64,000 nucleotides of DNA from Dokdonella sp. (GTDB lineage: Bacteria; Pseudomonadota; Gammaproteobacteria; Xanthomonadales; Rhodanobacteraceae): contig JANQAE010000001.1 of NCBI GenBank assembly GCA_024707225.1, forward strand, positions 1,857,387 through 1,921,386, given 5' to 3'. This document shows positions 41,418-61,462 of this stretch, piece by piece. Each line of letters opens with the position of its first letter. Position 1 is the stretch's first letter. The translations under genes were made by a program, and so were the position numbers. The notes beneath the pieces are model-generated. The model saw nothing but the letters and a program-made list of their open reading frames with translations. It did not search any database and was not told the origin of the DNA.

Positions 41418-41451
41418 TCTTCCGATCCACGCGACGAAACGGGATTCGTGC

Positions 41452-42294
41452 ATGTTCCTACGTGTGTTCCATCGCTTCTTCCGCGCCGGCGTCTGCGCCG
41501 GCGGTCTCGCCCTGGCGGCGCTGCCGGCGGCGGCCGCCCCCGAAGCGCTGCGCATCTGCGCCTCGGAGATCGAGGCGCCCTACTCGTACAAGGACGGCAG
41601 CGGCTTCGAGAACCGCATCGCCGAGATCGTCGCAGCGCAGATGGGCCGCAAGGCCGATTTCGTCTGGTCGCCGCGCGCGGCGATCTACCTGGTCCGCGAC
41701 GGCCTCGACAAGAACGAGTGCGACGTCGTCATGGGTCTGGACAGCGGCGACGAGCGCGTGCTGACGACCCGCCCGTACTACCGCGCCGGCTACGTGTTCG
41801 TGACGCGCGCCGACCGCGAGCTCTCGATCGACACCTGGAACGATCCGCGCTTGAAGCAGATGAGCTCGATCGCGATGGGCTATGCCTCGTCGGCCGAGGC
41901 GATGATCAAGAAGATCGGCAAGTACGAGGACAACGCCAACTACGTCTACTCGCTGACCGACTTCAAGTCGCGGCGCAACCAGTACATCCGTGTCGATCCG
42001 GCACGCATGGTCAACGAGGTCGCGCAGGGCAAGGCCGATCTGGCGATCGCGTTCGCGCCGGAGGTCGCGCGCTACGTCAAGGCGTCCACGGTGCCGCTGA
42101 AGATGCAGCGCGTGCCGGCCGACGACACCGGCACGGGCGAGCCGATCGCGTTCCAGTTCGACCAGTCGATGGCGGTGCGCAAGAACGACCGCGCCCTGCT
42201 CGACGCGCTCAATGCCGCGCTCGCGGCCGCGGCGCCGCAGATCCAGAAAGTGCTCAGTGACGAAGGCATACCGGTCGTTCCGGCTGCTTCCTGA
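41452..42294 (+). CDS. mxaJ: Methanol oxidation periplasmic binding protein MxaJ
   Basis: Periplasmic solute-binding-fold protein of 280 residues, required for methanol dehydrogenase assembly or activity in methylotrophs, though its exact job is not settled. The signal peptide is MFLRVFHRFF...LAALPAAAAPEA from the ATG at 41452. The SBP_bac_3-like fold shows LRICASEIEAPYSYKDGSGFENRIAEIVA at the start, YYRAGYVFVTRAD, then KADLAIAFAPEVARYV. Family members normally have about 280 residues, matching this one. It lies between mxaF and mxaG, the canonical place. The related N-terminal half of the ankyrin fusion at 53573-55240 is the xox-cluster counterpart. Confidence 0.93.
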   Translation: MFLRVFHRFFRAGVCAGGLALAALPAAAAPEALRICASEIEAPYSYKDGSGFENRIAEIVAAQMGRKADFVWSPRAAIYLVRDGLDKNECDVVMGLDSGDERVLTTRPYYRAGYVFVTRADRELSIDTWNDPRLKQMSSIAMGYASSAEAMIKKIGKYEDNANYVYSLTDFKSRRNQYIRVDPARMVNEVAQGKADLAIAFAPEVARYVKASTVPLKMQRVPADDTGTGEPIAFQFDQSMAVRKNDRALLDALNAALAAAAPQIQKVLSDEGIPVVPAAS

Positions 42295-42339
42295 GATCGC
42301 TCACGACCCAGGCCACCGGACCACCCAGATAGGTAGACG

Positions 42340-42900: not shown

Positions 42901-43001
42901 CGGCACCCGCCGCGCCGCATCGCCGGCGCGGACCTGCAACGGACGCCGCCGGACGCCGGCGGACCCATGATGGTTCCACTGCACCACACCGAGGAGCGAA
43001 G

Positions 43002-43313: not shown

Positions 43314-43319
43314 TTCGCG

Positions 43320-43354
43320 CGGCCGCCCGTCCGCCGTGCCGGCACGGGCGGCCG
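43320..43354 (+). terminator. Hairpin between mxaI and mxaR
   Basis: 11-bp stem CGGCCGCCCGT / ACGGGCGGCCG with a 13-base loop, starting 7 bp after the mxaI stop, with no T-run. It separates the four abundant structural genes from the accessory genes, so a role in lowering downstream expression or stabilising the mxaFJGI message is plausible. Confidence 0.5.
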
Positions 43355-43449
43355 CCGCGACGCCGGCACCGCCGCCCGCGCTGCCGCGCGGGCTCGCGTG
43401 TCCGCGCCGACACCCGCCTCACGAACCCTGCCCCGACGACACCGGCTAC

Positions 43450-44493: not shown

Positions 44494-44500
44494 ACGCCGC

Positions 44501-45379
44501 GTGGAATCCGCCGTGAGCGCCGCCGCCCGCGCGATCGACCCGGCGCCCGCCGAGGCGACGCTGGCCTATGCGCTGCGCTGGCGCGTGCGCGGGCTGACTC
44601 CGGGCGCGCATCGCGGCGCCGACACCGGGCCGACCGGTGCGTTCCGCCGGCTGGTGCCGTTCGAGCGCAGTCCCGATGCGCGCCGGCTCGACCTGCGCGC
44701 GAGCCTGCGCGATCCGTTCGGCGGACTGTACGTGCGCCAGTTCGAGCAGCGCAGCGCCGCCGCGGTCCAGGTATTGATCGACACCTCGGCGTCGACCGCA
44801 TTCGACGGCGGACACGGCAGCGCCTGGTCGCGCGCGATCGCGCTGACGCGCTACGTCGCCGATGCGGCCGGGTCCATCGGCGACGCGTTCGGCCTGGTCG
44901 CCGGTGCCGCGACCGCGGCGGTCGAGCGGCCACCGCTGCGGCAGCGCGCGAATGCCGCGCTCGATGCGCTGGACCGGCATGTGCCGCAGGGCCGCAGCAT
45001 AGACGCGCTGATCGACGCGGCGCGCACGCTCGGCCTGCGCCGCCGGCTGGTCTTCGTGCTGTCGGACTTCGCGTTCGCGCCGGCCGCGCTGGCGACATTG
45101 CTCGAGGCGCTGGCCGCGCACGACGTCGTGCCGGTCCGGTTCGGCCATGACGCGCTGACGCGCCTGCCGCGCTACGGCCTGGCCGAGCTGGCCGATCTCG
45201 AATCGGGCCGGCGCCGTCTGGTCTGGATCCGCCCGGCGCTGCGCACGCGCTGGCTCGCGGCCGAGGCGGCACATCGCGAGGCGGTCGCGGCGCTGTGCCG
45301 CCGCTACGGTCAGCCGCTGCTCGATCTGCCCGGCGCGCTCGACGTCGAGGCGGTCAGCCGACATCTGCTGGAGCGATGA
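44501..45379 (+). CDS. mxaS: DUF58 protein MxaS
   Basis: DUF58-type protein of about 292 residues, the partner of the MoxR ATPase. DUF58 sequence lies at SPDARRLDLRASLRDPFGGLYVRQFEQR and a degenerate VWA-like domain follows (VQVLIDTSASTAF, LVFVLSDFAFAP). The start is GTG at 44501 or GTG at 44513; both are 7-20 bp after the mxaR stop. Its role in methanol dehydrogenase maturation is known from mutant phenotypes of mxaS in Methylobacterium (established knowledge); mechanism is not clear. The 3' end overlaps the mxaA start as ATGA. Confidence 0.88.
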   Translation: MESAVSAAARAIDPAPAEATLAYALRWRVRGLTPGAHRGADTGPTGAFRRLVPFERSPDARRLDLRASLRDPFGGLYVRQFEQRSAAAVQVLIDTSASTAFDGGHGSAWSRAIALTRYVADAAGSIGDAFGLVAGAATAAVERPPLRQRANAALDALDRHVPQGRSIDALIDAARTLGLRRRLVFVLSDFAFAPAALATLLEALAAHDVVPVRFGHDALTRLPRYGLAELADLESGRRRLVWIRPALRTRWLAAEAAHREAVAALCRRYGQPLLDLPGALDVEAVSRHLLER

Positions 45380-46317
45380 GCACGATGCGCGCCTCGCCCT
45401 CACCGCTGCGCCGCTACGCCGCATCCGCCGTATTCGGTCTGCTGGCGGCGTCCGGCGCCTGCGCCGACGACGGCCCGATCCGCGCGTTGCAGGCGCTCGA
45501 CACGCGAGCGGTCGGCTATACGCTCGGCGATCGCGTGCCGCGCAGCGTGGTGCTGCGCGTCGACCGAGACTGGCAGCTGCAGAGCACCGCATTGCCGGCG
45601 CCCGGCCCGCAGACCTACTGGCTCGAGCTGCGCGCGCTCGACGTGCACGAGCGGCTCGAAGGCGATGCACGGGTCTATCGCATCGATCTGGACTACCAGA
45701 CGTTCTACGCGCCGATCCAGGCGCTCGAGCGCAGCCTGCCGGCGTTCGAGGTGACGGTCCGCCGCGGTGAGCAGACCGCGAGCGCGCGCGTGCCGCCGTT
45801 CCGCTTCACGATGTCGCCGCTGCGCGAGGTCAGGCTCAGCGCCGGCGGCGACGAACGCGCACCGTCGATGCTGCGCCCCGACATCGAGCCCGGCCCGCGC
45901 CCGCTGCGACCGGTGTTCGCCGCGCTGGGCGGCGCGGTCGTCTTGGCCGCCGCGTTCGCGCTCGCACTGGCCTGGCACTACGCGCGCTGGCCGTTCGGAC
46001 GCCGGCCGGCGCGGCCGTTCGCGCAGGCCGCGCGCCGTCTGCGCCGGCCGCCGCCGGACTATCGCGACGCGCTGCTGACCGTGCATCGCGCGTTCGACGC
46101 GACCGCCGGCCGCCGCGTGCTGGCCGAGGACGCCGCCGCGCTGATCGATGCGCAGCCGCGCTACGCGCCGCTGGCCGCCGACATCGGCCGCTTCTTCGCG
46201 GTCTCGCGCCAGGCGTTCTTCGGCAGCGGCGAACACGACGCCGCCGCGCTGCTGCCGCCGGCCGAGCTGACCGCGCTGGTGCGGCGGCTTGCCGCGGCCG
46301 AGCGGAGGCCGGCATGA
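45376..46317 (+). CDS. mxaA: Methanol dehydrogenase maturation protein MxaA
   Basis: Membrane-anchored protein of 313 residues needed for calcium insertion into methanol dehydrogenase in methylotrophs. The N-terminus MSTMRASPSPLRRYAASAVFGLLAASGACADD acts as a signal or anchor, a second span lies at VFAALGGAVVLAAAFALALAW (near residue 180-200), and the C-terminal part is a predicted cytoplasmic helical region (RDALLTVHRAFDATAGRRVLAEDAAALI). The ATG at 45376 overlaps the mxaS stop (ATGA), and the stop overlaps mxaC (ATGA). Assignment rests mainly on conserved operon position between mxaS and mxaC; the sequence itself is divergent. Confidence 0.82.
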   Translation: MSTMRASPSPLRRYAASAVFGLLAASGACADDGPIRALQALDTRAVGYTLGDRVPRSVVLRVDRDWQLQSTALPAPGPQTYWLELRALDVHERLEGDARVYRIDLDYQTFYAPIQALERSLPAFEVTVRRGEQTASARVPPFRFTMSPLREVRLSAGGDERAPSMLRPDIEPGPRPLRPVFAALGGAVVLAAAFALALAWHYARWPFGRRPARPFAQAARRLRRPPPDYRDALLTVHRAFDATAGRRVLAEDAAALIDAQPRYAPLAADIGRFFAVSRQAFFGSGEHDAAALLPPAELTALVRRLAAAERRPA

Positions 46318-47333
46318 CGGCGGCGACGGACTGGCTGCTGCTGCGCCCATGGGCGCTGCTCCTGCTGCCACTGGCGCTGCTGCCGTGGCTGTACGCGGGC
46401 CGGCACGTCTCGGCCTGGCCGTGGTCCGGCGCCCTGCCGGCCGATCCGGCCTCGGCCTGGCTCGATCGCGTCCTGCGCGTGCTCGGCTCGCTCGCGATCG
46501 CCGCCTTCGTGCTGGCGCTGGCCGGGCCGGGCCTGCGCGGCGAGCAGGTCGAGCGCATCAGCACCGGCGCGCGCGTCGCGATGGTGATCGACCGCAGCGG
46601 CAGCATGAACAGCACGTTCGCCGGCCGCGCGCCGGACGGCGGCGAGGAGTCCAAGGCCGCCGCGGCGAAGCGCCTGCTGAAGGCCTTCGTGACGCGCCGC
46701 GAGCACGACCGCGTCGGCATCGTCGCGTTCTCGACCTCGCCGATGTTCGTGCTGCCGATGACCGACCGCCATGCCGCCGTGCAGGCCGCGATCGACGCGA
46801 TCGACCAGCCGGGCCTGGCCTATACCGACGTCGCACGCGGCCTGGCGATGGCGTTCGACCTGTTCGACGCGCGCGATCCGGTCGCCTCGGAGGCGATCGT
46901 GCTGGTCTCCGACGGCGCGGCGGTGATCGATCGGCGCGTACAGGAGAAGCTGCGCGCGGCATTCGCGTCGCGGCCGCTGCATCTGTACTGGCTGTTCCTG
47001 CGCACCGAGCGCAGTCCCGGTCTGTTCGAGGCGCCGGCCGATCCGCGCGAGGACACGCCGCAGCGCATGCCCGAGCGTCATCTGCACCGGTTCTTCGAAT
47101 CGCTCGGCGTGCCATATCGCGCGTTCGAGGCCGACAGCGCGGCCGAACTGGCCGCCGCGATCGCGACGATCGACCAGGCCGAACGCGGCGAGGTGCGCTG
47201 GCTCGAGGCGCTGCCGCAGCGCGATCTGTCGCCGTTCGCGTTCGCACTGGCCGCGCTGGCCTGCGCGCTGCTGGCGATCTGCAAGTCCTTCGAAGTGCGG
47301 ATCGGCCCGCCGCTGCCGGTGCTGCGGCCATGA
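46314..47333 (+). CDS. mxaC: VWA-domain protein MxaC
   Basis: Membrane-anchored von Willebrand factor A protein of 339 residues, part of the calcium-loading/assembly module of methanol dehydrogenase. N-terminal spans: WALLLLPLALLPWLYAG and VLGSLAIAAFVLALAG. The MIDAS motif is DRSGSMN (VAMVIDRSGSMNSTF), with VLVSDGAAV as the second conserved strand; a C-terminal membrane span is FAFALAALACALLAIC. It overlaps mxaA upstream and mxaK downstream by 4 bp each. Domain order matches BatA-like proteins encoded with MoxR ATPases. Confidence 0.9.
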   Translation: MTAATDWLLLRPWALLLLPLALLPWLYAGRHVSAWPWSGALPADPASAWLDRVLRVLGSLAIAAFVLALAGPGLRGEQVERISTGARVAMVIDRSGSMNSTFAGRAPDGGEESKAAAAKRLLKAFVTRREHDRVGIVAFSTSPMFVLPMTDRHAAVQAAIDAIDQPGLAYTDVARGLAMAFDLFDARDPVASEAIVLVSDGAAVIDRRVQEKLRAAFASRPLHLYWLFLRTERSPGLFEAPADPREDTPQRMPERHLHRFFESLGVPYRAFEADSAAELAAAIATIDQAERGEVRWLEALPQRDLSPFAFALAALACALLAICKSFEVRIGPPLPVLRP

Positions 47334-47908
47334 AGCGCGCGCGGACCCTGCGCCTGCGTGCGCTGATGCCGGCCCTGCTCTGGAGCGGTCTCGCGATCGG
47401 CCTCGGCGCGGTCGCGACGAGCGCCGCGCTGCTGGCGCAGCGTCTGCACGACAACCGCCTGATCGCCGCGCTCGCCGAAGGCCGCGACGTCGAGGTCGGC
47501 GAGGACGCCTCGGCGGCGCTGATGTTCGCGCGCGCGCACTACCTGCTCGTGCGCGACCGGCTCGACGATGCGCGCGCGCCGACCGAGCGTCTCGCGCTCG
47601 GCGACGCGCGCCGGTTCGCGTTCGCGGCGCTCTACGACCAGGGCAATGCGCATCTGCGTCGCGCGCTCGAGATCGTGGGCGCGCACCGCTACGACGACAC
47701 GATCGCCCAGGTCAATCTGGCCAAGGAGCACTATCTGCGCGCGCTGCGCATCGATCCGGGCGACTGGGATGCCAAGTTCAACCTCGACGTCGCGATGCGC
47801 CTGGTCCGCGATTTCCCCGACGGCGAGGCCGAAGGCGACGAGGAACCGCCCGAGCAGCCGGACCGGCTCTGGACCGACCTGCCCGGCCTGCCGCGAGGCG
47901 GACCGTGA
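47330..47908 (+). CDS. mxaK: MxaK, methanol dehydrogenase accessory protein
   Basis: Small membrane-anchored protein of 192 residues. One N-terminal membrane span (MPALLWSGLAIGLGAVATSAALLA), then a TPR-like helical part (FARAHYLLVRDRLDDAR, YDQGNAHLRRALE, LAKEHYLRALRIDPGDWDAKFNLDVAMRLV), a pattern similar to the TPR tail of BatB/BatE-type proteins. Identification as MxaK rests on its place between mxaC and mxaL and on size; the function, probably in calcium insertion or assembly, is not defined. ATGA overlaps on the upstream side and a GTGA overlap with mxaL. Confidence 0.85.
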   Translation: MKRARTLRLRALMPALLWSGLAIGLGAVATSAALLAQRLHDNRLIAALAEGRDVEVGEDASAALMFARAHYLLVRDRLDDARAPTERLALGDARRFAFAALYDQGNAHLRRALEIVGAHRYDDTIAQVNLAKEHYLRALRIDPGDWDAKFNLDVAMRLVRDFPDGEAEGDEEPPEQPDRLWTDLPGLPRGGP

Positions 47909-48882
47909 GCGGCCGCGCCGACGCGCGGTTCCGGCTGCTGCTGGCCGCCACCGCGCTCGCCTGCCTCGGCATCGCCGATCCGCAGATCGACTACCGGCGT
48001 CAGCGCTACGACGCGCTGTTCGTCGTCGACATCAGCGGCAGCATGAACGTGCGCGACTACCGCCTGGACGGCGCGCCGCAGAGCCGGCTCGACCACGTCA
48101 AGGCCACGCTGGCGGCGCTGATCGCCGACCTGCCGTGCGGCTCGCGCGCCGGCGTCGGCGTATTCGCCGAGCGCCGTCCGTTCCTGCTGATCGCGCCGGT
48201 CGAGACCTGCGCCAACTTCGCGCCGCTGGCCGGCATGCTGCAGCAGCTCGACTGGCGCATGGCCTGGGAGGGCGACAGCTACATCGCCAGCGGGCTGTAC
48301 CAGTCGATCGACCTGGCCGCCGCGTTCGACACCGATCTGGTCTTCCTCAGCGACGGCCAGGAGGCGCCGCCGCTGCACTGGAGCGGCGCTGCGCCGTTCG
48401 AGGGCGAGCCCGGCGCCGTACACGGCCTGATCGTCGGCGTCGGCGACGTGATCCCGTCGCCGATCCCGAAGTTCGACCGCGACGGCCGCGAGAGCGGCTT
48501 TCTCGAACCCGGCGACGTCGTACAGGAGAACCGCAGCGGCACGCCGCCACCGGACGCCGAGCGGCGCGAGGGCTGGCATCCGCGCAACGCGCCCTGGGGC
48601 GCCGCCGCGGCGAGCGGCGAGGAACATCTCTCGGCCGTGCACGAAGCGCATCTGCGCGCGCTGGCCGCGGCGACCGGCCTGGGCTACGTGCGGCTGACGC
48701 CGGGCCTGCGTCTGGACCGCGCGCTGGCCGGCCACGCCGCACCGCGCGAAGCCGACGCGCGCCTGTCGCTGGCGCCGTGGTGTGCGGCGGCGGCGCTGAT
48801 CCTGTTGACGGCGGTCTGGCGACCCGAACGCGCCGGCCGTCCGCTGTCCCTGCTTTCGCTACGACCGAGGAGACCCGCATGA
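47905..48882 (+). CDS. mxaL: VWA-domain protein MxaL
   Basis: Second von Willebrand factor A protein of the operon, 325 residues, starting at a GTG that overlaps the mxaK stop (GTGA). MIDAS motif DISGSMN in LFVVDISGSMNVRDYRL, and the second strand LVFLSDGQEAPP. The N-terminus has one hydrophobic segment (LLLAATALACLGIADP) and the C-terminus another (WCAAAALILLTAVW). Like mxaC, it is a BatB-type protein thought to act with MxaR/MxaS in making active enzyme. Its stop overlaps the mxaD start. Confidence 0.89.
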   Translation: MSGRADARFRLLLAATALACLGIADPQIDYRRQRYDALFVVDISGSMNVRDYRLDGAPQSRLDHVKATLAALIADLPCGSRAGVGVFAERRPFLLIAPVETCANFAPLAGMLQQLDWRMAWEGDSYIASGLYQSIDLAAAFDTDLVFLSDGQEAPPLHWSGAAPFEGEPGAVHGLIVGVGDVIPSPIPKFDRDGRESGFLEPGDVVQENRSGTPPPDAERREGWHPRNAPWGAAAASGEEHLSAVHEAHLRALAAATGLGYVRLTPGLRLDRALAGHAAPREADARLSLAPWCAAAALILLTAVWRPERAGRPLSLLSLRPRRPA

Positions 48883-49427
48883 GCTACCGCTTCCCCCGTT
48901 TCGCGCTGGCCGCCGCGTTCGCGGCCGCGCTGCCGATCGCGCCGGCATTCGCGCACGGCCCGACGCCGCACAAGGCCGAGGAGGCCGTGACGATCGCGCG
49001 GCCGCCGGCCGAGGTCTGGAAGGCCGTCGCCGATTTCGACGCGCTGGCGAAATGGAACCCGGCGGTCAAAAGCAGCGTCGCCAGCAAAGGCAACGCGCCC
49101 GGCTCCGAGCGCACCGTCGTGCTGGCCGCCGGCGGTGAGCTGATCGACAGCCTCGACACCTACGACGCGGCCGCGATGAGCTACGGCTATCGCCTCTATC
49201 AGGAGAACGTCGAGGCATTTCCGGTCAGCTACTACACCGCCGAGCTCAGCGTGAAGCCGGCCGACCGCGGCAGCGAAGTCGTCTGGTCGGCGCGCTACTA
49301 CCGCGGCGACACCCACAACGACCCACCGGAGAACCTCAACGACGAAGCCGCGCAGAAGGCGATCCACGACCTGTTCCGCGCCGGCCTGGACAACCTCAAG
49401 CAGACGCTGGAAAAAAAGGACCTTTAA
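48879..49427 (+). CDS. mxaD: MxaD, SRPBCC-fold periplasmic protein
   Basis: Exported protein of 182 residues, SRPBCC (START/Bet v 1-like) fold. The ATG at 48879 overlaps the mxaL stop and follows GAGG at 48867-48870. Signal peptide MSYRFPRFALAAAFAAALPIAPAFAHG. The motif VTIARPPAEVWKAVADFDALAKWNP is typical of the fold; a hydrophobic groove is expected. In Methylobacterium, MxaD is reported to enhance electron transfer between methanol dehydrogenase and cytochrome cL. It is the last recognisable gene of the operon; mxaE, mxaH and mxaB of the Methylobacterium order are absent. Confidence 0.93.
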   Translation: MSYRFPRFALAAAFAAALPIAPAFAHGPTPHKAEEAVTIARPPAEVWKAVADFDALAKWNPAVKSSVASKGNAPGSERTVVLAAGGELIDSLDTYDAAAMSYGYRLYQENVEAFPVSYYTAELSVKPADRGSEVVWSARYYRGDTHNDPPENLNDEAAQKAIHDLFRAGLDNLKQTLEKKDL

Positions 49428-49791: not shown

Positions 49792-51395
49792 TCATTTGAT
49801 CATCTCCACCAAATTAAGGGGCTTGGCCAACACCTGCACACCGTGCGGGCTACGCCCAGTCTCGAACACGGTCTGCCAGAAACTGTTGTTTTGCTTCCCA
49901 CCGAACACCGTCTCCGAAAGATCTTTGTTCACCCAAAGCGGTAATGCCGACAAATTGCGGACAAAGTTGCGGATGTTGATCCACAGCTGCTCCGGAAACA
50001 AGTAGTGAAATAACTTATCCTCTTGAATCGGCTTGCCCGTATTTATGAAATAGTTCTTGGCAACGTGTTGGATGTACCGCAGCCAGTTATAAACCAATTC
50101 CTCCTTGCTCATGCGGAAGGCGCGAAGATGGTCATGCTTGAACACATCCCCTTTCTGCAACCGACTTTCGATCTTATCGGTACCGACGTCCGGATCGAAT
50201 CTCCCAACGTAGACCTCTTCTGCAATGATGTTCATCAGCTTAACGATCTGCGATGTTTCAAGCTCCGCGGATTCTCACCACTCTCAACGCCAAAATTGAG
50301 AGGAGTCGACAAGACTCCTTGATGAACAAAGAAAGAATAAAAAGTCTTGTCAATGGTGCTATAGGACAGCGGGCGCTCCTTGCCCCGACCGCCATAGTCG
50401 ATGAAGTCACGCAACTTGTTTCCCGCATCTGAAGTGACCGCATCGCGAACGGCATCCAAGATGAATCGCTTCATCTCGCGCGACTGCCCCTTAAAATAGA
50501 CCACTAGCTCCTGTTCGCTGAAACTAAGATCCCCATCGGGACGTCCCGTTTCAGCTCGAAACCGCTTCAGCCTATCGGTGTAAAGAGTGCTGCCCAGGTG
50601 GCGCTGCACCGATTTGTCGAAAGCCACCTGCTTTAGGGTGGTGCCGGCATTGGTATTGGTCGTTATCAGCGTGTCTGGATCGGGGTCGAAGAAAACCCGA
50701 ACGGGCAGCGCCTTCGCTCCCAACATGATCTGTGCTGCGGCCTTATGCTGTCCGTCAAAGACGTGGATCGCACTCTTACCACCGTCCGAACTGGCCCACG
50801 CCAACGGCACATGGAGCTGTGGACGCCGCTGGTAGAACTCCTGCACCAATTTGCCGATGTTACTACCGATGCTCCGCGGATTTATGCGATCGTCATGAGC
50901 CAAATACTGAATCGGCAACTTTGCGAAGAAGTAGCGAAAACCGCTCAGCTCGTCGATGTATACGGGCACCGTACGCACTCGCTCATCGCCAACCGCGCTG
51001 AGAGTGAAGCTCACGCTATCGTCGGCAATCTTGAACGCCAACTGCTGTGACCCCCCGCCCGCCTCTCGTAGCACATCACCAAGATTCGCATTGCGATTCT
51101 CGGGAGCGACGGCGTCCTTGAGGCGGCTGAAGCGCTGCAATATCCGAGCAACCTCCAGATTGGCAGCCTGCTTGGAGCGGTTGCAGCTGGCGTGTGTTAG
51201 TGCAAAGTTCGAAGAATCGTCCTTTCCGCCGGTGTTGATCGGCACTACATGATCGATATCGATGGCGTCCTTGTGGAGTATCAGATCGATATCCTGCTCA
51301 CAAATGAAACAATGACCATTCTGAGTTGCATGCAGTTGCGCTATTAACGCCTTTCGTTCATCAGCGGTTTTGCGCGATAAGAAGAGCGACGACAT
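49792..51395 (-). pseudogene. HNH endonuclease fused to DGQHR/DndB-like domain, one frame break
   Basis: Large protein in a low-G+C segment, possibly a defence or DNA-modification-dependent nuclease. Residues 28-75 form an HNH nuclease of the C-x2-C type: C29, C32, the [11 protein letters not shown] motif with H49, then C71-N-R-S-K. Residues about 140-240 contain [13 protein letters not shown] (214 onward), the DGQHR-type motif of DndB/DptB and ParB-related proteins. The first frame ends in SLKHRRSLS at 50237. A single-base change near 50263-50270 lets the sequence run on as [23 protein letters not shown] in the frame of 49792-50235, which reads as one coherent protein of about 534 residues. 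Alternatively the two frames are separate coupled genes (TGATG overlap). Function unproven. Confidence 0.72.
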
Positions 51396-51849: not shown

Positions 51850-52833
51850 CTACTTCCCGATCACCACGCCCCACGGCAGCTCGCCGACCGCGATGTCCTT
51901 GATCTTCTTGCGCGTGGCCGTGTCGATCACGCTGACGCTGTTGGAGCGCCCGTTGGCGACGTAGAGCTTGCGGCCGTCCGGCGTCAGCGCCGGGTTCCAC
52001 GGCCGCTCGCCGACCTTGATCTCGGCGACCGACTCGCCCTTGGCGACGTCGATCACCGAGACGCTGCCGGCGCCGCCGTTGGACGCGTAGACGAACGCGC
52101 CGTCGGCGCTGACGGTCAGGCCGGCGGTGCGCAGGCCGGTCGCGATGCTGCCGGTCTTGCTGCGCGAGGCCAGATCGATCACGTCGACGACGTTGGCGGT
52201 CTCCTGCGCGACGTAGAGCCGCGACGTTTTCGGCAGGAACGCCATGCCGCGCGGATGGCCGCTGGTCTTGATCACGGCGACCGAGCGGCCGGCGGCGACG
52301 TCGATGACGTCCAGATCGCTGCTGGCCTCGTTGCTGGTCAGCAGCCACTTGCCGTCCGGCGAGAACACGCAGTGCTCGGGATTGCGGCCCTGCGTCGCCA
52401 CGTCGGCGCGGATCTTCAGCGTCGCCGCGTCGACCAGCAGGATGTGCTGCGAGCCTTCGACGCAGACCGCCAGCGAGGCGCCGTCCGGCGAGACCGTGAC
52501 GCCCTCGGCATCCTCCTCGATCGGCACGCGCGTGCGCACGCTGTCCGAGGCGATGTCGAGCGCGACCAGCGCGTTGTGCGCGGCATCGATCACGAACAGC
52601 GTCTTGCCGGACGGATCGAGCGCGACCTGCTGCAGGCGCTTGCCGAGCTGGCCCTGCGCGCTCAGCGTGCGCACGACCTCGTCGCTGCCGGTGTCGATGA
52701 TCGAGATCGTGCCGCTGCGCTGGTTCGGCACGTAGGCCATCGCTGCGGCCGATGCATGGACGGCGCCGAACGCCGCCGCGAGCGCAATCGCGGCCGTCAG
52801 CAGACGGCCGGGGCGCAGAAACGATCGAAACAT
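51850..52833 (-). CDS. YVTN beta-propeller protein associated with PQQ-dependent oxidation
   Basis: Exported beta-propeller protein of 327 residues. The ATG at 52833 follows GAGGAG. Signal peptide MFRSFLRPGRLLTAAIALAAAFGAVHASA. Seven or eight YVTN-type repeats follow, e.g. AYVPNQRSGTISIIDTG, VFSPDGKWLLTSNEASSDLDVIDV, VYASNGGAGSVSVIDV, LYVANGRSNSVSVIDT. This is the composition of the family described as 'PQQ-dependent catabolism-associated beta-propeller'. Its position directly after the cytochrome gene of the xox cluster supports a role in that pathway, but the specific function is unknown. It is the last gene of the cluster on this strand. Confidence 0.88.
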   Translation of the reverse strand: MFRSFLRPGRLLTAAIALAAAFGAVHASAAAMAYVPNQRSGTISIIDTGSDEVVRTLSAQGQLGKRLQQVALDPSGKTLFVIDAAHNALVALDIASDSVRTRVPIEEDAEGVTVSPDGASLAVCVEGSQHILLVDAATLKIRADVATQGRNPEHCVFSPDGKWLLTSNEASSDLDVIDVAAGRSVAVIKTSGHPRGMAFLPKTSRLYVAQETANVVDVIDLASRSKTGSIATGLRTAGLTVSADGAFVYASNGGAGSVSVIDVAKGESVAEIKVGERPWNPALTPDGRKLYVANGRSNSVSVIDTATRKKIKDIAVGELPWGVVIGK

Positions 52834-52954
52834 GGGCAATCTCCTCGGGACGGTTCGGGTGCGGCGCGGCATCGGCCGGTGCCGGCACGCCGCGCGAAGA
52901 GCGGAGCGACCGCTGCCGGACCGGCGCGGCCGCTCCATCACTGCGGACGCCGGC

Positions 52955-53512
52955 TCAGTGCTTGCCGACGTCGAGCGGTGCGTCGGTCGCGTGCTTGGAC
53001 GCGTCGCCGTACTTCTTCGCCTCGCTGCCGCGCCAGTTGGAGCGGACGAACGTGATGATCTTCCACAGATCGTCGTCGGTCTTGACGATCGAGCCGAACG
53101 GCATCATCGGTCCGACCACGTTTTCCTTGCCGATCCGATGATAGCCGTCCTTCTGCAGTGCGTCGCTGCCTTCGGAGATCAGGCGGAACAGCGTATCGTC
53201 GTCGCCGCCATAGACCCAGGTCTCGTTGGTCAGCGGCGGACACATGCCGCCGCCGCCGGAGCCGCCGTGGCAGCCGTTGCAGCTGGCCCGCAGGAACAGC
53301 TTGCGTCCTTCCTCGACGATGGCCTTGTCCGAATCCTGGTACGGATTCTTGAGCTGTCCCTTCGGCGTGGACTTGATGCGCTCGAGCGGCGGCATCGTCC
53401 CGGCCGCGGGCGCGGCGGCCGGATCGGCGGCCGCGGACGTCGCCGGCAGACCGAGCCACACGGCCGCCGCCAGCACCAGCGAAACACTTGCTGCAACTGC
53501 TTTGTTCAACAC
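52955..53512 (-). CDS. c-type cytochrome of the xox cluster
   Basis: Periplasmic monoheme cytochrome c of 185 residues, probable electron acceptor of XoxF (the role of XoxG/PedF). The GTG at 53512 is chosen because GAGGAG lies 6 bases upstream and the following MLNKAVAASVSLVLAAAVWLG is a good signal peptide (first residue encoded by GTG); the frame extends to 53548 without a Shine-Dalgarno. Heme motif CNGCH in RASCNGCHGGSGGGGMCPPLTNETWVYGGDD, with an additional conserved cysteine after the glycine run, a feature of methanol- and alcohol-oxidation cytochromes of the PedF type. The likely methionine ligand is in VGPMMPFG. It lies 60 bp after the XoxJ-ankyrin gene. Confidence 0.88.
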   Translation of the reverse strand: MLNKAVAASVSLVLAAAVWLGLPATSAAADPAAAPAAGTMPPLERIKSTPKGQLKNPYQDSDKAIVEEGRKLFLRASCNGCHGGSGGGGMCPPLTNETWVYGGDDDTLFRLISEGSDALQKDGYHRIGKENVVGPMMPFGSIVKTDDDLWKIITFVRSNWRGSEAKKYGDASKHATDAPLDVGKH

Positions 53513-53572
53513 GTACGACTCCTCACTTTCGATTGCCTGGGGTAACACACCTGGGAAGGACGCAGCCGCCGC

Positions 53573-55240
53573 TCAGCCACGCTGCGCCGGGCCGCCTGAA
53601 CCGCCACCGGACGCACGCGCGTGCTCGAGCACCTCGACCACGGCGCGGTTGTCGCGTTCGCTGGCGATGCCCAGCGCGGTCGTGCCGTCCTCGCTGGTCG
53701 CGCCTGCGTCGGCGCCGTGCTGCAGCAGCAGCCGCACCGAGTCGACGCGATTGGCCGCCGCCGCGATGATCAGCGGCGTGATGCCTGCCTTGTTCTGCGC
53801 GTTGACGTCGGCACCGCGCTCGACGAGCTTGGCCGCGGCGTCGTCCCAGCCGCCGACCAGGGCCAGCATCAGCGGCGTGTAGCCGCCGGCGCCGACGCTG
53901 AGGTTGGTGTTCGCGCCGGCCGCGAGCAGCGCGGCGACCGCGCCGGAGCGGCCGTGCTGCGCCGCGATGCACAGCGGCGTCAGGCCCTGCTGATTGGCGG
54001 TCTCGAGCCTGGCGCCCTTCTCGAGCAGCATGCCGACGATCTCCGGGCTGTCGCGCCAGGCCGCATACATCAGCGGCGTCCAGCCGTCGCGGTCGGCGAG
54101 GTTGACGTCGGCGCCGTGCTGGATCAGGAAACGCGTCAGATCGTTGTAGCGCGTCTTGACCGCGGTCAGCAGCGGCGTGTAGCCCTCGTCGTCGCGCGTG
54201 TCGACGTCGGCGCCGTGCTCGAGCAGATAGCGCACGCGCACGACGTCGCCGGCGGTCGCGGCATTGGACAGCTCGTCGTTCGGGTCGGCACCCTCCTTGA
54301 GCCAGCGCTTGAGCTGGTCGAGGCTGGCGCCGGTGCCGCCGGACGGCGTCGCCATCGAGGCCACCTCGGTCTTCGGCTGCGCGCCGTACTGCTGCGCGAC
54401 CAGTTCGCCGCTGACCACGCATTCGGCACACTGCACCAGCGGCACGCCGTATTCGTCGAGAATCGCGCGGATCTGGTCCTTGCGGCTGACCAGCACCTCG
54501 TCGAGCTTGTCGCGCAGATTGCGGTCGCCGCGGCGCACGCCCAGCGCCATCTCGAACTGCAGCGGCGGATCGGCCGTCATCAGATTGACCGGCTGCAGCG
54601 TGATCGGCGCCTGCTTGATCGTCTTGTACCAGCCCGCGAACGGTCCCCAGATCGCGACCAGGTCGAGCTCGCCGTCGATCATCCGCTGCACCTGGTAGGA
54701 CGGCTGATGCTCGGGCACGGTGACGCCGTCGTAGCTGATGAAATGCGTGACGGTGTTGTCCTTGATGCCGTGGTCGGCCAGCGCCTCGCGCACCGAGGAC
54801 ATCTGGTAGACGCCGATCTTGAGCTTCTTGAGGCGCGGATCGTCGAGGTTCTCGAAGCGCAGCTTGCGGTCCGTGCGCGAGGCCAGCACGAAGGTGCTGC
54901 GATAGACCGGCCGCGTCGTCAGCACGCGCTCCAGGCCGACCGGCAGGTCGAACATCACGTCGCACATGTTGGCGTCGAGCGTGCCGCGCATCAGGCCGCG
55001 CTCGGTCGACGGACGGAAGTCGTACTGCACGCCGGTGCCGAGCGCCTCGCCGAGCACCTTGGCGATCTTGTTCTGGAAGCCTTCGCCCTTGTCGTTGGAC
55101 AACGGCATGTTGCCCGGATCGGCGCAGACGCGCAGCGCGCGGATCTCCTGCGCCTGGGCCTGCCCGGCGCCGAGCGCGAGCGCGCTGGCGGCGGCGAGGG
55201 CGGCGAGGGCACTCGCCGGCGGGTGGTGGATCCGGATCAT
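53573..55240 (-). CDS. XoxJ-like solute-binding protein fused to ankyrin repeats
   Basis: Exported two-part protein of 555 residues. The ATG at 55240 follows TGAGGAG and gives [31 protein letters not shown] as signal. Residues about 30-300 are a periplasmic binding-protein domain like those encoded beside quinoprotein dehydrogenases: [69 protein letters not shown]. After a cysteine pair (QCAECV) the rest, about 305-545, is six or seven ankyrin repeats ([59 protein letters not shown]). It is the counterpart of MxaJ with an added protein-binding module. 271 bp downstream of xoxF and 60 bp upstream of the cytochrome gene. Confidence 0.9.
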
Positions 55241-55511: not shown

Positions 55512-57371
55512 TCAGTCGCCCACGCGGAACGTGTAGAGCGTGCCGCCCTGCGGGATCTTGTCGAGGTTGGCCGCCTTGGTCATCGCGGTGGCGCCGATCG
55601 CGCCGAACTTGTCCTCCAGATCCAGGCCGGCGGTGACCGGCAGGCCGATCCAGCCGCCGATGCCGCTCCAGACCGACACGTACTGCTTGCCGTTGACCTT
55701 GTAGGTGATCGGATTGCCGATCACGCCGGAGCCGAGCTTGCGCGACCACAGCACCTTGCCGGTCTTGCGATCGACCGCGCGGAAGTCACCGCCGAGGCTG
55801 CCGTAGAACGCCAGGCCGCCGTCGGTGATCAGCGCGCCGCCCCAGTTCGGATACGGATCGGGGATTTCCCACACCGTCTCGCCGGTCAGCACGTTGAACT
55901 TCTTGAACTTGCCGGTCACGCCCGGCTTCTCCGGATACATGTAGACGTTGGCGAACACGTAGACCGTGCCCTGCTGGGTATGGGCACGCTCCTGCGGCTC
56001 GAGCTCCATGCACCAGTTGTTGGTCGGGCAGTAGGCGACGCCTTCCTCGTTCGGATCGAGCGCGCACGGCTGCTGGTCCTTGCCGCCCATCGCCGACGGG
56101 CAGACCTGCGTGTTCTGCTCGACCGAGAACGGCGAGTGCTCCTTGACCTTGACCGGCCTGCCGGTCTTCATGTCGACCTTCTCGGCCCAGTTGGCGGTGA
56201 CGTACTTGTGCGCCTTGAGCAGGGTGCCGTCGGCGCGGTCGAGCACGTAGGCGAAGCCGTTGCGGTCGAAGTGCACGAGGACCTTGCGCTTCTTGCCGTC
56301 GATCGTCCAGTCGGCCAGCATGTTCTCGTTGATGCCGTCGTAGTCCCACTGGTCGAACGGCGTCATCTGGTAGGCCCACACGGCCTCGCCGGTGTCGATC
56401 TTGCGCGCGAAGATCGTCATCGACCAGTGGTTGTCCTGGCTGCCGTCGTTGCACTCCTCGTGGGTCTTGTGCTTGCAGCGGAACGAGGGACTCCACAGGC
56501 CCGGATTGCCGGTCGCGTGGTAGACCAGCTTGAGCTCGGGGTCGTAGCTGTAGAAGCCCCAGCTGGCGCCGCCGCCGCGCTTCCACTCGTCGCCCGGATA
56601 GCCGGTGATGCCCAGGTCCTTGCCGCCCTGGCCGTAGTGCGGATTGGCCTTGTTGGTGTTCTTGGTCACGCACACGTCCTTGTCCGGACCGGTGGCGTGG
56701 CATTCCCAGAGCTTCTTGCCGTCGGCCAGGTTGTAGGCCGTGAAGCGGCCGCGCGCGGCGAACTCGTCACCGCCGAAACCGATCAGCACCTTGTTCTCGG
56801 CGATCAGCGGCGCCGGCGTGATCGTCTCGCCGTTCTCGGGGAACGCGTGCTTGACGACCCACAGCTCCTTGCCGGTCTTGGCGTCGAGCGCGATCACGAA
56901 GCCGTCGAGCGTGCCGAACACGACCTTGCCGTCGGCATAGGACAGGCCGCGGTTGACCGTGTCGCAGCAGGCGCGCGGCACCGCCGACTCGTCGCGATCT
57001 TCCTGCTTGACGTACTTCCAGATCGCCTTGGGATTGTCCGGATCGCTCAGGTCCAGCGCCTGCACGATGTTCGGCCAGCCGCTGATCAGATACATCATCG
57101 CCTTGCCGCCCTCGGTCACGACGACCGGCTGGCCCTCGTGGCCGCGCAGCGTGCCGCTGGACTGCGACCAGATCATCTGCAGCTTGCCGACGTTGTCGGT
57201 CGAGATGTCCTTGAGCGGGCTGTGCCGCGTCATCGACAGATCGCGGCCGGGCGCCGGCCACTGGTTCGGATCCTTCTGCCGCTCGATCGTCTCGGGGTTC
57301 GCCATCGCGCCCGCGCTGACCGCCCCCATGAGCACCGCGGTACACACCATCGCTACTCGTCGAAATTTCAT
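55512..57371 (-). CDS. xoxF: Lanthanide-type PQQ-dependent methanol dehydrogenase XoxF
   Basis: Periplasmic quinoprotein dehydrogenase of 619 residues, predicted to oxidise methanol (possibly other alcohols) with PQQ and a lanthanide ion. The ATG at 57371 has GAGGAG 8 bases upstream. Signal peptide [24 protein letters not shown]. It has the adjacent cysteines in [40 protein letters not shown], and the catalytic segment [17 protein letters not shown] with D343 and, two residues on, D345, the extra aspartate that ligates lanthanides. TKDQQP-like [11 protein letters not shown] follows. The sequence is distant from the common XoxF5 type, so its exact clade and substrate need a tree. Divergent from azurin. 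Confidence 0.92.
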
Positions 57372-57863
57372 TCGTTGCACTCCTCATTCGCAGACGGAAG
57401 ACCCCTGGCAACGGCGATGCCGAAGGCACCTACCCACGGGCCGCGCGCTACCAACCAGCACCACGTCGATCGTTGCGCGACGCTTGTTAAGCAGCGGATG
57501 TGCCAAGCGCGAAGACGGACATTGCGACCTGAGGATTCAAGGAGTTGCGGACGTGTTCGGGAGAATTTCCTGTTGCGTTGCAATAGGAATTGCTCCCGAA
57601 GTGACACACTGGCGTTCAGGCGGAACAGCGGCTGCCGCGGCCGTCCGACGCGCGGACGCCGTCTGCCGTCGCGCGACCGATCGTCGCAGTCCTCACAACC
57701 GGCGGCGCATTCATGCCGCTCGGCTTATCATGGCCGCGGCCATCGACGAGTCCGTCACGCCAAGCTCCGGAGCGCAGCAGCGACGCGATCCGGACCCGCG
57801 CCGAAGAACGGACCTGAGGCCCGCGCAATCCTTCCTCCACCGGTTCTTCAAGGAGTCACATCC
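57372..57863. promoter_or_regulatory. Divergent promoter region of xoxF and azurin, with a 45-bp dyad
   Basis: 492 bases without a gene. The outstanding feature is an imperfect inverted repeat at 57556-57600: TTCGGGAGAATTTCCTGTTGC, loop GTT, GCAATAGGAATTGCTCCCGAA (21-base arms, 3 mismatches, all outside the outer 8 and inner 4). It is 185 bp upstream of xoxF and 264 bp upstream of azurin. It may be an operator for a dimeric regulator or a leader hairpin. Promoter elements were not assigned. Confidence 0.55.
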
Positions 57864-58307
57864 ATGTCCAGACTACTGATCGCCGCCGGCCTGTTCGCGC
57901 TGGCCGCTCCGGTCTTCGCGGCCGAATGCTCGGTCGACATCGCCGGCGACGACATGATGAAGTTCGACAAGACCAGCATCGAAGTCAGCAAGAGCTGCAA
58001 GCAGTTCACGGTCAACCTCAAGCACCCCGGCCAGCTCGCCAAGAACGTGATGGGCCACAACTGGGTGCTGGCCAAGACCTCCGACGTCCAGGGCGTGGCG
58101 ACCGACGGCATGTCGGCCGGCCTCGACAAGGACTACATCAAGCCCGGCGACGCCCGCGTGATCGCGCATACCAAGGTGATCGGCGCCGGCGAGACCGACT
58201 CGGTGACGTTCGACGTCGCCAAGCTCGCGGCCGACGGCGACTACACGTTCTTCTGCTCGTTCCCGGGTCACTGGAGCATCATGAAGGGCTCGCTGAAGCT
58301 GATCTGA
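57864..58307 (+). CDS. azu: Azurin, type I blue copper protein
   Basis: Periplasmic electron carrier, 147 residues with signal peptide [19 protein letters not shown]; the mature protein begins [16 protein letters not shown], the classic azurin N-terminus with its disulfide cysteine. Copper ligands: H65 (NVMGHNW), C131 and H136 ([10 protein letters not shown]), M140 (SIMKG). Start ATG 57864 with AAGGAG at 57850-57855. It is transcribed away from xoxF. In this setting it is a plausible carrier of electrons from the cytochromes of methanol oxidation to the terminal oxidase; azurin serves this way in some methylotrophs. A strong terminator follows. Confidence 0.97.
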
Positions 58308-58704: not shown

Positions 58705-61462
58705 TTAGCTTATAACCGGCCGGCGAATAACATAGGCTCGAGTTCGAATATCACCGACAGAGCCCGCTCCCACAACGATATCAAATTCGCGATCGAAGTC
58801 GTTTGCCGCGACGATAGCGCTTACCGGAACATGCCAAGAGTTTGCCGCAGCCTCTACGATAGCGCCCGCTAGCGTCATGGGAACACCATCTTCATTATTG
58901 AAAGATCCAGCATAAACCGACCCCTTTTTTATGGTCGCCTTGAAATATTACAGGCAACCCCGATGCACCTGTAACAAACACGTTGAATGCAGGCTCGAAC
59001 TCTTTGACATGTTTCAACTCATAGTCAAGCAACATAAAGTCCACAATCACTAACTCATCAGGCAGTTCCATCCGTTCGATATCGATTGCAGATACCCAAG
59101 CTCCACGATGCTTGGCAATAGGTAAACTTCCGGTACGACCACCGCAGATCCTGATGGTCTGCGCAGCAGAAACCTGAGACTCGGGCTCCTCATACAGTGC
59201 CGGGACAAGTGTCGCCTGTTCAGATGCCCAGCTCGCAAGCTGCTCTTCTGACAATACTGGCTCCGCGCGGTCGCGTGCGGCGCGCGTTGACTCACCCGCG
59301 ATAAATCCGGCAATACCTTGAAGTGGAGACGCTGCGAACCCCCCCACAGTGATCGCTCCGCCTAGGACAGGCTCCGCCAGGGCATACGATCTGTCCGCGG
59401 CGACAATGCAAATCCGGGCGATGGGTTCGCCACTGCTGCTTTTCAAAACGCGAAGATTCTCGGAGGCTTTTGACGCGAAGGCTCGCTGACTTTCGGGCGA
59501 AAAGCGGCTCTCTCGAGGGGCGGGACAGCGATCACAAAAAAGAACCTCTCCAGGAATGGATACCCAATCGTGAGGTTGTATGACGCGCTGTGTGTGACCA
59601 GCCTGCGTAACTACGAGATTAACATCAAGCGTGGGAGCCGTACGCGTGCAAAGAGATACTAACTCTGTTGATGCATTTCGAAACAAACCGTCTGCCTCGA
59701 AAGGAGACTTCCGGAGCGTCAACTCGACAATAGTACCACCATCACGGAGTCGCTCCTCGCGCGTCGCAGGACGCAGTATTGGTCGACCGCTGAGTCCGGA
59801 GCCAAACTCAAGAACGAGTGTATCTGTGGCGGCCGCGTCAGGTCGTCTCGTGACTACCTTGACGCGATCAGATGCCATAAATACCGAAAAGAATCCTATT
59901 CCGTATTTTCCAGTGCTACGGAAACCCATTGAAAGAAGACCGGGAAATTCTTCTTGAACCTGAGGCTTATTCCAAAAGCTTGATCCGAAATCAAGAAGAT
60001 AACGAGTGAGCACGCGAGAGGACATGCCGACTCCATCATCCATCACCCGAAGAGTGAATGAACCCGCACTCTCAAGCAGCTCCACAGAAACTTGCCCAAA
60101 CTCGACTGGCCGCCCCTCATAAAGTCTGCGGGCCCGAATCGCATCTGCACCATTCTGAATTAGCTCTCTAAGTGGTACGGTCGGATCATTTCCGTACAGC
60201 TCCTCACCGCCCAAACTTCTGATTATGTTGGGAAGATCGGACAGATGAATTGCAGCATGAACAGGGTGCCAGCCTGTTGTCTGTATGTAATGAGCGAGAC
60301 GCTCCGGATGATCAACGCCAGCCACACGCCGAGCAGAAAATCGAGGCATGGATCGGTCCGCCAATAGGCTATCAATTCCCCTAAGCTCCGCATCGACCAT
60401 CCGCAGCGTATCTAGGCAAAGCCACCAAGCGCTAGACTCATCAAGAGAGAAAGCTTGGCCCGAAGTAAAAATAAGGGCATCGTCTTTCACGTAGGACTTA
60501 TTTAACCGCTCTTGAAAGGTCCAATGCATCCTGGATTCAGGCTTGATATTGGAGAAAATTTTCTGAAATGGGGGCGACCTTCGCGCATCCACGTGTGCAG
60601 CATCAGCCGCTCTCAGAATGCAAGCGATCTTCAATGGATCGATCGTCCAATCTCCGGGCGCCCAATGAGGAGCGCCGATTCGGCGATCCAGGCGTTTTTC
60701 AGCCTCAGTCAGTGACCACCAGTGGCTATGTGCAATTTGACCGATAACTCGGCCGAAGGTTTGCCTAAGCTCAGTATCTTCGATGAGATATTGAGCAGAC
60801 GCTCCCATGCCAAACTGAAGGAAGGCAAGCTTTTCTGCATTTTCGGCATGTAACAAGCGCAGCAAAGAGAATAGAGCGAGTTGCCGAGCACCCTCTGGAG
60901 GCTCGGCGACTTCAAGCAAGTTCGGCGCTCTGCCATATGTGGAGCGGAAATAGGAGTGAATAGTGTCAGCCCAGCGTGGATCGCGCCTGATCGCATCCAA
61001 TCCTCCCGGTGTCGCAGCGATGGACATCGCCAGATCGTGCAACAGGAGGCTCCCTCCTAGCACGTAGCCCTCCGCAGGATTTAGTGAGAAGTTCGGCCCC
61101 ACAATTTGGGAAGCCACCTCCCATAGCGCGTCCAGATGAGTAATGTCGTGGACTGTGAGGTCGGGAAGATCCTTGGCAATCTCAAGGGAGAGAAGGCTTG
61201 CGCGCTCCCTAAAGCTCAGAAATGACGTCCGCAAACGATCACGTTCTGCCTGATACAAGTCAGGGTCCACGTTCGCCAGCGTGCGTCGCCATAATGAGCT
61301 CTGCTCGACGGTCTTGGACAGATCTAGCATTAGATTGTTCTCTCTGCGGCCTTTTTGGATGAGTCTAGTGATCGTTGGAGTGTTCTGCGTATTGCGACTA
61401 GCCACCTGACTTCGTCCAACAGTAAATTCCTCACCATCCGATTGGGTATTGCCATTTAACAT
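58705..61462 (-). CDS. HD-domain plus Hsp90-type (GHKL) ATPase protein, frame break near the C-terminus
   Basis: Large cytoplasmic protein of about 918 residues, low G+C, no known name. Residues about 100-300 look like an HD phosphohydrolase-type domain (TVHDITHLDALWEVA, GGSLLLHDLAMS, CILRAADAAHVDARR). From about 405 to 700 it is a Hsp90-like ATPase: N-box LRELIQNGADAI (E433, N437), MDDGVGM (475 onward), and GKYGIGFFSVFMASDRVKV (518 onward), then a middle domain. The frame as read stops at 58895, but one surplus base at the run CCCCTTTTTT (58921-58930, coding AAAAAAGGGG) explains it: the frame then continues as SVYAGSFNNEDGVPMTLAG and ends VIRRPVIS at 58705. Start 61462 or ATG 61330 (MLDLSKTVEQ). 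Role unknown; domain type and setting suggest a stress or phage-defence ATPase. Confidence 0.72.

What the first reader, a model, noticed from the sequence alone, without database searches (positions are those of the whole stretch)
53573..55240. XoxJ-like binding protein fused to about seven ankyrin repeats
XoxJ/MxaJ proteins normally end after the binding-protein fold. Here the same chain continues with a long, intact ankyrin domain after a cysteine pair. Since the protein is exported, the ankyrins are periplasmic and could dock onto XoxF, the cytochrome or the propeller protein. I know of no described function for this fusion.
Basis: partly seen in the sequence, partly recalled or inferred. 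Interest (0 to 1): 0.75.

Follow-up and report, generated by a model that had tools for sequence, protein, structure and literature searches.

The report
Ankyrin-armed helper of lanthanide methanol dehydrogenase
A helper protein that serves one branch (XoxF1) of the rare-earth-dependent methanol-oxidising enzymes carries seven ankyrin repeats on its tail, and this form accompanied that branch in the genomes sampled, which points to an undescribed step in how the enzyme is assembled or wired up.

Summary
One unbroken 555-aa ORF (53573-55240, minus) joins a XoxJ-type binding domain (TIGR03871, above cut-off) to a tail modelled as seven ankyrin repeats, after an invariant C-x-x-C and a disordered linker. 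It is no assembly join: other genomes have the same protein. Nor is it an oddity. All 80 loci kept from a genome scan are fused (the best 80 of 227; fused queries), in Alpha-, Beta-, Gammaproteobacteria and Methylomirabilota, with XoxF immediately upstream in 78. These XoxFs form one clade with 7O6Z, the XoxF1-type enzyme; its diagnostic Asp position is D/N in 81 of 82 distinct partners and in 0 of 32 other dehydrogenases. Sampled through XoxF instead, 14 of 14 XoxF1-level genes have a fused XoxJ, 0 of 23 others. Fused XoxJs form one clade (100/100). The same window holds an MxaF system with a plain MxaJ. Most likely the head opens apo-XoxF1 for PQQ and lanthanide loading, as proposed for XoxJ/MxaJ, and the ankyrin arm is a second grip, probably on XoxF1, less likely XoxG; what the arm binds is inference. 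The paper searches showed nothing on this fusion.

The parts
53573..55240 (-). XoxJ-Ank fusion gene, 555 aa plus stop
55151..55240 (-). probable Sec signal peptide (aa 1-30)
   Evidence: read by eye; helix 9-25 in the model; no signal-peptide predictor was run
54434..55138 (-). periplasmic binding-protein head, aa 35-269
   Evidence: TIGR03871 250.8 bits; 6ONP XoxJ, 9ISM and 5SV6 MxaJ by sequence and fold
54419..54430 (-). invariant C271-x-x-C274 at the end of the head
   Evidence: 82 of 82 rows (81 distinct genes) of fused homologues in A3
54323..54385 (-). variable linker, aa 286-306
   Evidence: pLDDT below 50 at 290-303; lowest conservation of the three regions compared
53597..54292 (-). 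seven ankyrin repeats, aa 317-548 (after a capping helix 307-315)
   Evidence: Pfam Ank families; seven helix pairs; DARPin/ankyrin hits; repeat borders set by me
55512..57380 (-). XoxF1-type lanthanide methanol dehydrogenase, directly upstream
   Evidence: TIGR03075 568.2 bits, above cut-off; best PDB hit 7O6Z 893 bits; WDYDG and Asp172-equivalent in GGDEF
52955..53548 (-). cytochrome c (XoxG position)
   Evidence: Pfam Cytochrom_C 40.9 bits, above cut-off; MoxG model 38.7 bits, below its cut-off 147.8
51850..52941 (-). YVTN-type beta-propeller protein
   Evidence: TIGR02276 repeats 177.9 bits, above cut-off; TIGR03866 174.3 bits, below its cut-off 287.3
41491..42291 (+). plain MxaJ of the window's MxaF system (internal control, no ankyrin tail)
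   Evidence: TIGR03870 357.7 bits, above cut-off 258.1

Best explanation
This is the dedicated assembly/activation factor of a XoxF1-type lanthanide methanol dehydrogenase. After export, the binding-protein head docks on partly folded apo-XoxF1 and keeps it open for PQQ and lanthanide insertion, as proposed for XoxJ and MxaJ. The ankyrin arm, joined by the C-x-x-C hinge and a flexible linker, adds a second grip, most likely on XoxF1 itself, less likely on XoxG. Shown here: the fusion, an export-type N-terminus, one origin in the tree, exclusive pairing with XoxF1 in the samples, purifying selection on the arm. Inferred from the family: the head's activity. Inferred only: what the arm binds.
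For: Head is TIGR03871 and best matches XoxJ 6ONP in the PDB; a cryo-EM MxaF/MxaJ complex exists (9ISM, title seen), so a J protein binds its F. Paper passages read: J proteins are essential for their dehydrogenases and may bind partly folded apo-enzyme to let PQQ and metal in (PMC12997753); in M. extorquens AM1 loss of xoxJ equals loss of xoxF1 and xoxF2 in methanol La medium (PMC7391723). XoxF immediately upstream in 78 of 80 loci; in the other two, L088 and L096, the contig ends within 300 bases of the head match. Fused J: one clade, 100/100, 100% of 200 bootstrap trees. Partner XoxFs plus 7O6Z: one clade, SH-aLRT 100, quick method. XoxF1-level genes with fused J: 14 of 14; others 0 of 23. 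Arm under purifying selection: dN/dS 0.20 against 0.27 for the head, one pair of genomes. The arm is kept in the 16 of 70 loci with no cytochrome hit downstream. Mirror-tree partial correlation given the head, 58 of 80 loci: arm-XoxF 0.16 (2 of 500 permutations as high), arm-cytochrome 0.10 (23 of 500).
Against: No complex could be modelled. Concave-face positions of the repeats are not significantly better conserved than convex ones (JSD 0.39 vs 0.34, p = 0.18), so no single conserved groove shows up. The arm diverges faster than head or XoxF (mean distance 1.13, 0.73, 0.35). The mirror-tree signal is weak and does not fully remove shared ancestry. The role data on J proteins that I saw come from XoxF5/MxaF systems, not XoxF1. 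The cytochrome count rests on likeness to the window's cytochrome, so a divergent XoxG nearby could have been missed.
Confidence: 0.55

Rival explanations
1. The arm docks the electron acceptor: head on XoxF1, ankyrins on XoxG (or the beta-propeller), so the protein couples enzyme to cytochrome rather than assembling the enzyme.
For: A cytochrome c hit lies downstream in 54 of 70 loci and a propeller hit somewhere in 55 of 70; in the window the order is XoxF, J, cytochrome, propeller. A role in dehydrogenase-cytochrome interaction has been proposed for J proteins (PMC12997753, passage).
Against: 16 of 70 loci lack a nearby cytochrome hit yet keep the arm; the arm-cytochrome mirror signal is weaker than arm-XoxF. 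The cytochrome may be coded elsewhere or be too divergent for the query, so this is not decisive.
Confidence: 0.25
2. The arm is a heme or cofactor carrier or general chaperone, like periplasmic AnkB/Cj1386, serving cytochrome maturation or PQQ delivery.
For: Ankyrin proteins of P. aeruginosa and C. [quoted passage not shown] J sits beside a cytochrome c. The hinge has a His in 91% (weighted) of homologues, Gln in the window (position 283).
Against: XoxF carries PQQ, not heme (recalled). In 63 of 82 A3 rows the four invariant Cys are the only ones, so none is in the repeats; the window itself has a fifth at 424. Heme ligands were not tested otherwise. The association is with XoxF1 more than with cytochrome genes.
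Confidence: 0.08
3. The arm is a structural spacer or anchor (envelope, peptidoglycan or self-association) without a specific XoxF1 partner.
For: Repeat surfaces are variable; the linker is modelled as disordered.
Against: Restricted to XoxF1 partners over two phyla and not missing beside any of the 14 XoxF1-level genes sampled; only 1 of 80 tails has a borderline transmembrane-like stretch (hydropathy 2.03).
Confidence: 0.1
4. Artefact of assembly, or a chance fusion in one strain.
For: None found.
Against: 88%-identical protein in another genome; 80 of 80 kept loci fused.
Confidence: 0.01

Closest known systems
XoxJ of Methylorubrum (Methylobacterium) extorquens AM1 (PDB 6ONP; its XoxF is of type 5 according to PMC8546591)
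   Same: Same binding-protein fold and family; best PDB sequence match of the head (134 bits)
   Different: 284-residue chain, matched at residues 37-271: no room for ankyrins, and no C-x-x-C in the matched part
MxaJ (PDB 5SV6; 9ISM MxaF/MxaJ complex)
   Same: Head fold; in complex with the dehydrogenase in 9ISM (title)
   Different: No tail; partner is MxaF. A plain MxaJ is in this same window (41491-42291)
XoxF1-type methanol dehydrogenase of Methylacidimicrobium thermophilum AP8 (PDB 7O6Z, PMC8546591)
   Same: Closest solved enzyme to the window's XoxF (893 bits); diagnostic Asp shared
   Different: Whether AP8's own XoxJ (MTHMO_v1_1701, named in PMC7907005) has ankyrins could not be seen with these tools
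Cytochrome cGJ (fused XoxG-XoxJ of Methylacidiphilum)
   Same: Another fusion involving XoxJ; beginning of the title seen in the reference list of PMC8546591, details recalled
   Different: Fused to a cytochrome, not to ankyrins
Periplasmic ankyrin proteins AnkB (Pseudomonas aeruginosa) and Cj1386 (Campylobacter jejuni)
   Same: Bacterial ankyrin proteins that support an oxidoreductase (passage in PMC7567364); AnkB is periplasmic by the title of the paper cited there
   Different: Serve catalase; no binding-protein head (recalled)

Membership tests
XoxJ/MoxJ_2 (TIGR03871) | Score above the curated cut-off over the whole model | tested here: met
   250.8 bits against 212.15, model 1-232 of 232
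XoxJ/MoxJ_2 (TIGR03871) | Encoded beside a quinoprotein dehydrogenase | tested here: met
   XoxF at 55512-57380, next gene upstream
XoxJ/MoxJ_2 (TIGR03871) | Required for activity of the partner dehydrogenase | not testable with these tools
   Reported for other members in passages read
MxaJ (TIGR03870 equivalog) | Score above the curated cut-off | tested here: not met
   128.1 bits against 258.1
Ankyrin repeat proteins | Tandem 33-residue helix-turn-helix repeats | tested here: met
   Ank_2 169.6 bits; seven helix pairs; DARPin/ankyrin fold matches
Partner enzyme: XoxF1 clade | Asp172-equivalent, called diagnostic for XoxF1 in PMC8546591, and clade with 7O6Z | tested here: met
   Asp in the window; D/N in 81 of 82 distinct partners of fused J, 0 of 32 others; one clade
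Partner enzyme: XoxF1 clade | Cys240-equivalent, the companion residue in the 7O6Z structure | tested here: not met
   Ala in the window; 66 Ala, 14 Ser, 2 Thr in 82 distinct partners; mostly small residues, but not Cys. The paper calls only the Asp diagnostic
Dot/Icm ankyrin effectors (NCBIfam AnkH, AnkY and others) | Score above curated cut-off | tested here: not met
   Best is AnkH, 90.9 against 600 bits; generic repeat matches

The most novel reading that the evidence does not exclude
XoxF1-type dehydrogenases need a two-handed maturation factor found in no other methanol-dehydrogenase branch: the binding-protein head opens the apo-enzyme while the ankyrin arm grips a second surface of the enzyme or its cytochrome, and the invariant C-x-x-C hinge makes the hand-over sensitive to thiol redox state or to a bound metal.
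Probability: 0.15. Interest if true: 0.8.

Novelty: new variant of a known kind. Interest (0 to 1): 0.6.

Why it matters
How XoxJ helps XoxF is still argued over in lanthanide-dependent methylotrophy, and XoxF clade differences are described as underexplored (PMC12482762, passage). An arm that marks exactly the XoxF1 branch gives a clean genetic handle: delete only the arm and ask whether metal loading, PQQ loading or electron transfer fails. It also gives a simple sequence marker for XoxF1 operons, and a case of an exported ankyrin domain tied to a known metabolic enzyme.

Tried and rejected
Assembly join or frame error: rejected. One-off fusion: rejected. Dot/Icm effector: rejected, far below cut-offs. 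A conserved concave binding groove: looked for, not found (p = 0.18; repeats 2-6 alone p = 0.60). Mirror-tree test: weak, reported with its limits. The first motif script missed L127; the HMM scripts found it fused, so 80 of 80. A regex for the XoxF1 Asp mostly failed and was replaced by an alignment.

Rows and limits: the genome scan kept the best 80 of 227 relatives and its query was built from fused proteins, so it is biased towards fusions; the XoxF-led samples are the control. Those searches scored only the best 3 to 6 candidates per genome, so weaker copies may be missed. A3 has 82 rows: window, L009-L011 and 78 of the 80 scan loci (L084 left out for its extra-long ORF, L127 as cut by the contig end); L010 and L083 are the same gene, so 81 distinct; L038 was left out because it repeats L144. 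J tree: 87 fused and 56 plain rows (86 and 51 distinct) thinned at 70% identity to 38 and 34. XoxF tree: 86, 26 and 7 rows (fused partner, plain partner, no J; 82, 25 and 7 distinct) thinned at 83% to 27, 18, 6 plus 5 PDB references. The first counts of the Asp position, 85 of 86 and 0 of 33, held repeats; the distinct counts, 81 of 82 and 0 of 32, are. Genome sets overlap: seven of the 14 XoxF1-level genes are also among the 80 loci (G016, G391, G753, G845, G853, G876, G1169).

Papers: ten searches, seven of them pairing ankyrin with XoxJ, methanol dehydrogenase, xoxF, periplasm/catalase/AnkB, methylotroph, PQQ-dependent, or lanthanide and methanol. Hits were judged from titles and abstract starts in the listings (20 of 106 papers listed; 29 listed of 30), plus passages of PMC7589939, PMC7391723, PMC8546591, PMC7907005, PMC12482762, PMC7567364 and PMC12997753; no paper was read whole. 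PMC12426252, which holds both ankyrin and xoxF, was not opened. Featherston 2019 (PMC6814260) is not held; Zhou 2025 (the MDH assembly paper cited in PMC12997753) was not found. Neither was read.

Full report
What is there. The ORF at 53573-55240 (-) is intact and 555 aa long. Its first 30 residues look like a Sec signal peptide (by eye). Residues 35-269 match TIGR03871, the quinoprotein-dehydrogenase-associated binding protein family (250.8 bits, cut-off 212.15), and fall short of the MxaJ equivalog (128.1 against 258.1). The rest matches Pfam ankyrin families. An AlphaFold2 model on an alignment of 82 rows (mean pLDDT 89.5) has the two-lobed head, a disordered linker at 290-303, a capping helix and seven helix pairs; pTM 0.63 suggests that the head-to-arm orientation is not fixed. 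In the 50 Foldseek rows shown, the tail finds ankyrins/DARPins and the head finds 5SV6 MxaJ, 6ONP XoxJ and 9ISM MxaF/MxaJ.

Surroundings. On the same strand the order is XoxF (55512-57380), this gene, a cytochrome c (52955-53548), a beta-propeller protein (51850-52941). The XoxF has WDYDG, the lanthanide-type motif (motif recalled), and its best PDB match is 7O6Z, the XoxF1-type enzyme of Methylacidimicrobium thermophilum (PMC8546591): 893 bits, against 587 for 4MAE (a XoxF2, same paper) and about 497 for 6DAM and 6OC5 (XoxF5 clade, partly recalled). At 39-49 kb on the plus strand lies a separate calcium-type system: a dehydrogenase with WDYAG that groups with the MxaF of 4TQO, a plain MxaJ (357.7 bits, cut-off 258.1), MxaG, the MDH beta subunit, a MoxR-type ATPase, a DUF58 protein and von Willebrand proteins. 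One genome thus has a tailed and an untailed J side by side, each with its own enzyme.

How widespread. A scan of genome contigs with the head alone confirmed 227 relatives and kept 80 loci. All 80 have the ankyrin tail (one search saw 79), among them Hyphomicrobium zavarzinii, Methyloceanibacter, Methyloligella, Methylotenera mobilis 13, Methylophilus, Methylophaga, Solimonas aquatica, Rudaea cellulosilytica and Candidatus Methylomirabilis. XoxF lies immediately upstream in 78 of 80; in the other two (L088, L096) the contig ends within 300 bases of the head match. Four cysteines (39, 93, 271, 274) are invariant in 82 of 82 aligned rows, 81 distinct genes. A hydrophobic segment precedes the head in 76 of 80 by a simple threshold.

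The other direction. That scan used fused queries, so I also sampled by XoxF. In 197 genomes of the family, 369 of the class and 289 of another class (Alphaproteobacteria, since G391 matches the Oceanicola record L144), hits fall into two groups: 14 distinct genes at 838 bits or more, and, in the alphaproteobacterial sample where weaker hits were listed, 23 genes at 555 bits or less. After fetching flanks, 14 of 14 in the first group have a fused J next door; of the 23, 19 have a plain J nearby (one on the other strand), 4 have none in the sequence held (one of these not extended), and 0 have a fused J. Seven of the 14 are also among the 80 loci. In the phylum-wide sample of 398 genomes searched with the whole protein at E <= 1e-25, matches over the whole length came from 3 genomes only, all fused, and the other head matches stop between residues 269 and 307. 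These searches score only a few candidates per genome.

History. On the head domain alone, 38 fused and 34 plain sequences separate by one branch with 100/100 support, in 100% of 200 bootstrap trees (quick tree). The partner XoxFs of fused J together with 7O6Z are one side of one branch (SH-aLRT 100, quick method only). The position that the 7O6Z paper calls diagnostic for XoxF1 (Asp172; passages) is Asp in 77, Asn in 4 and Ala in 1 of 82 distinct partners, and Gly or Ala in all 32 other dehydrogenases. The companion Cys240 is not conserved: 66 Ala, 14 Ser, 2 Thr. So the arm was most likely gained once and is a mark of the XoxF1 branch; whether before or after the verrucomicrobial XoxF1 split off is unknown. 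The count of changes cannot by itself tell gain from loss.

What the arm does. It is kept by selection: between the window and its 88%-identical relative dN/dS is 0.20 for the arm and 0.27 for the head, and mean column conservation is 0.50 for the arm, 0.60 for the head and 0.28 for the linker. Among neighbours, XoxF is the constant one (78 of 80), not the cytochrome (54 of 70) or the propeller (55 of 70). Mirror-tree partial correlations on 58 loci point the same way weakly (0.16 for XoxF, 0.10 for the cytochrome). Against a simple peptide groove: concave positions are not significantly more conserved than convex ones.

Mechanism. J proteins are described as essential for their dehydrogenases and may hold partly folded apo-enzyme so that PQQ and metal can enter (PMC12997753, passages), and MxaF and MxaJ form a complex (9ISM title). 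I propose the same for this head on XoxF1, with the arm as a second grip, most likely on XoxF1. The first half follows from the family; the second is inference, with XoxG docking as the main rival. The C-x-x-C at the base of the arm could be a disulfide or a metal or redox site; nothing here tells which.

Novelty. Head and arm are known folds and the head is a known family member; the combination, its tie to XoxF1 and its apparent single origin look undescribed in the library searched (no title or abstract start in the listings treats it; most subscription papers are not held). I rate it a new variant of a known kind.

Noticed in passing
window 39254-49427 (+): Separate calcium-type methanol dehydrogenase cluster: MxaF-like (WDYAG), MxaJ, MxaG, beta subunit MxaI, MoxR ATPase, DUF58 and VWA proteins.
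   Followed up: partly
window 49792-51395 (-): Two genes between the two methanol-oxidation clusters: an HNH endonuclease protein (386 aa, with a DGQH motif seen by eye) and a 147-aa protein without Pfam match. Both are absent from the list of ORFs with third-position GC above 0.8, unlike their neighbours; PADLOC matches only through the HNH part.
   Followed up: partly
window 58895-61462 (-): 855-aa protein with an HD-CE domain and an HSP90-like ATPase domain; no PADLOC match; also absent from the high-GC3 list.
   Followed up: partly
window ~57882-58307 (+): End of a long ORF reads like a small exported azurin-type copper protein, close to the XoxF1 operon on the other strand; by eye only.
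   Followed up: no
L084:2874-6080: In Methyloceanibacter marginalis the fused XoxJ ORF runs on for about 440 aa beyond the ankyrin match (1069 aa in all).
   Followed up: no
L127:2-1366 and 6707-8503: A Hyphomicrobiales MAG has two ankyrin-tailed XoxJ ORFs on one contig, the first cut by the edge of the held sequence and followed by a propeller gene, then a XoxF and the second copy.
   Followed up: no
G745 (L188): The most divergent XoxF1-level hit in the window's own family (838 bits) still has a fused XoxJ; its XoxJ and XoxF fall away from those of the family's other members, the XoxJ in an alphaproteobacteria-rich group, which may mean horizontal transfer.
   Followed up: no
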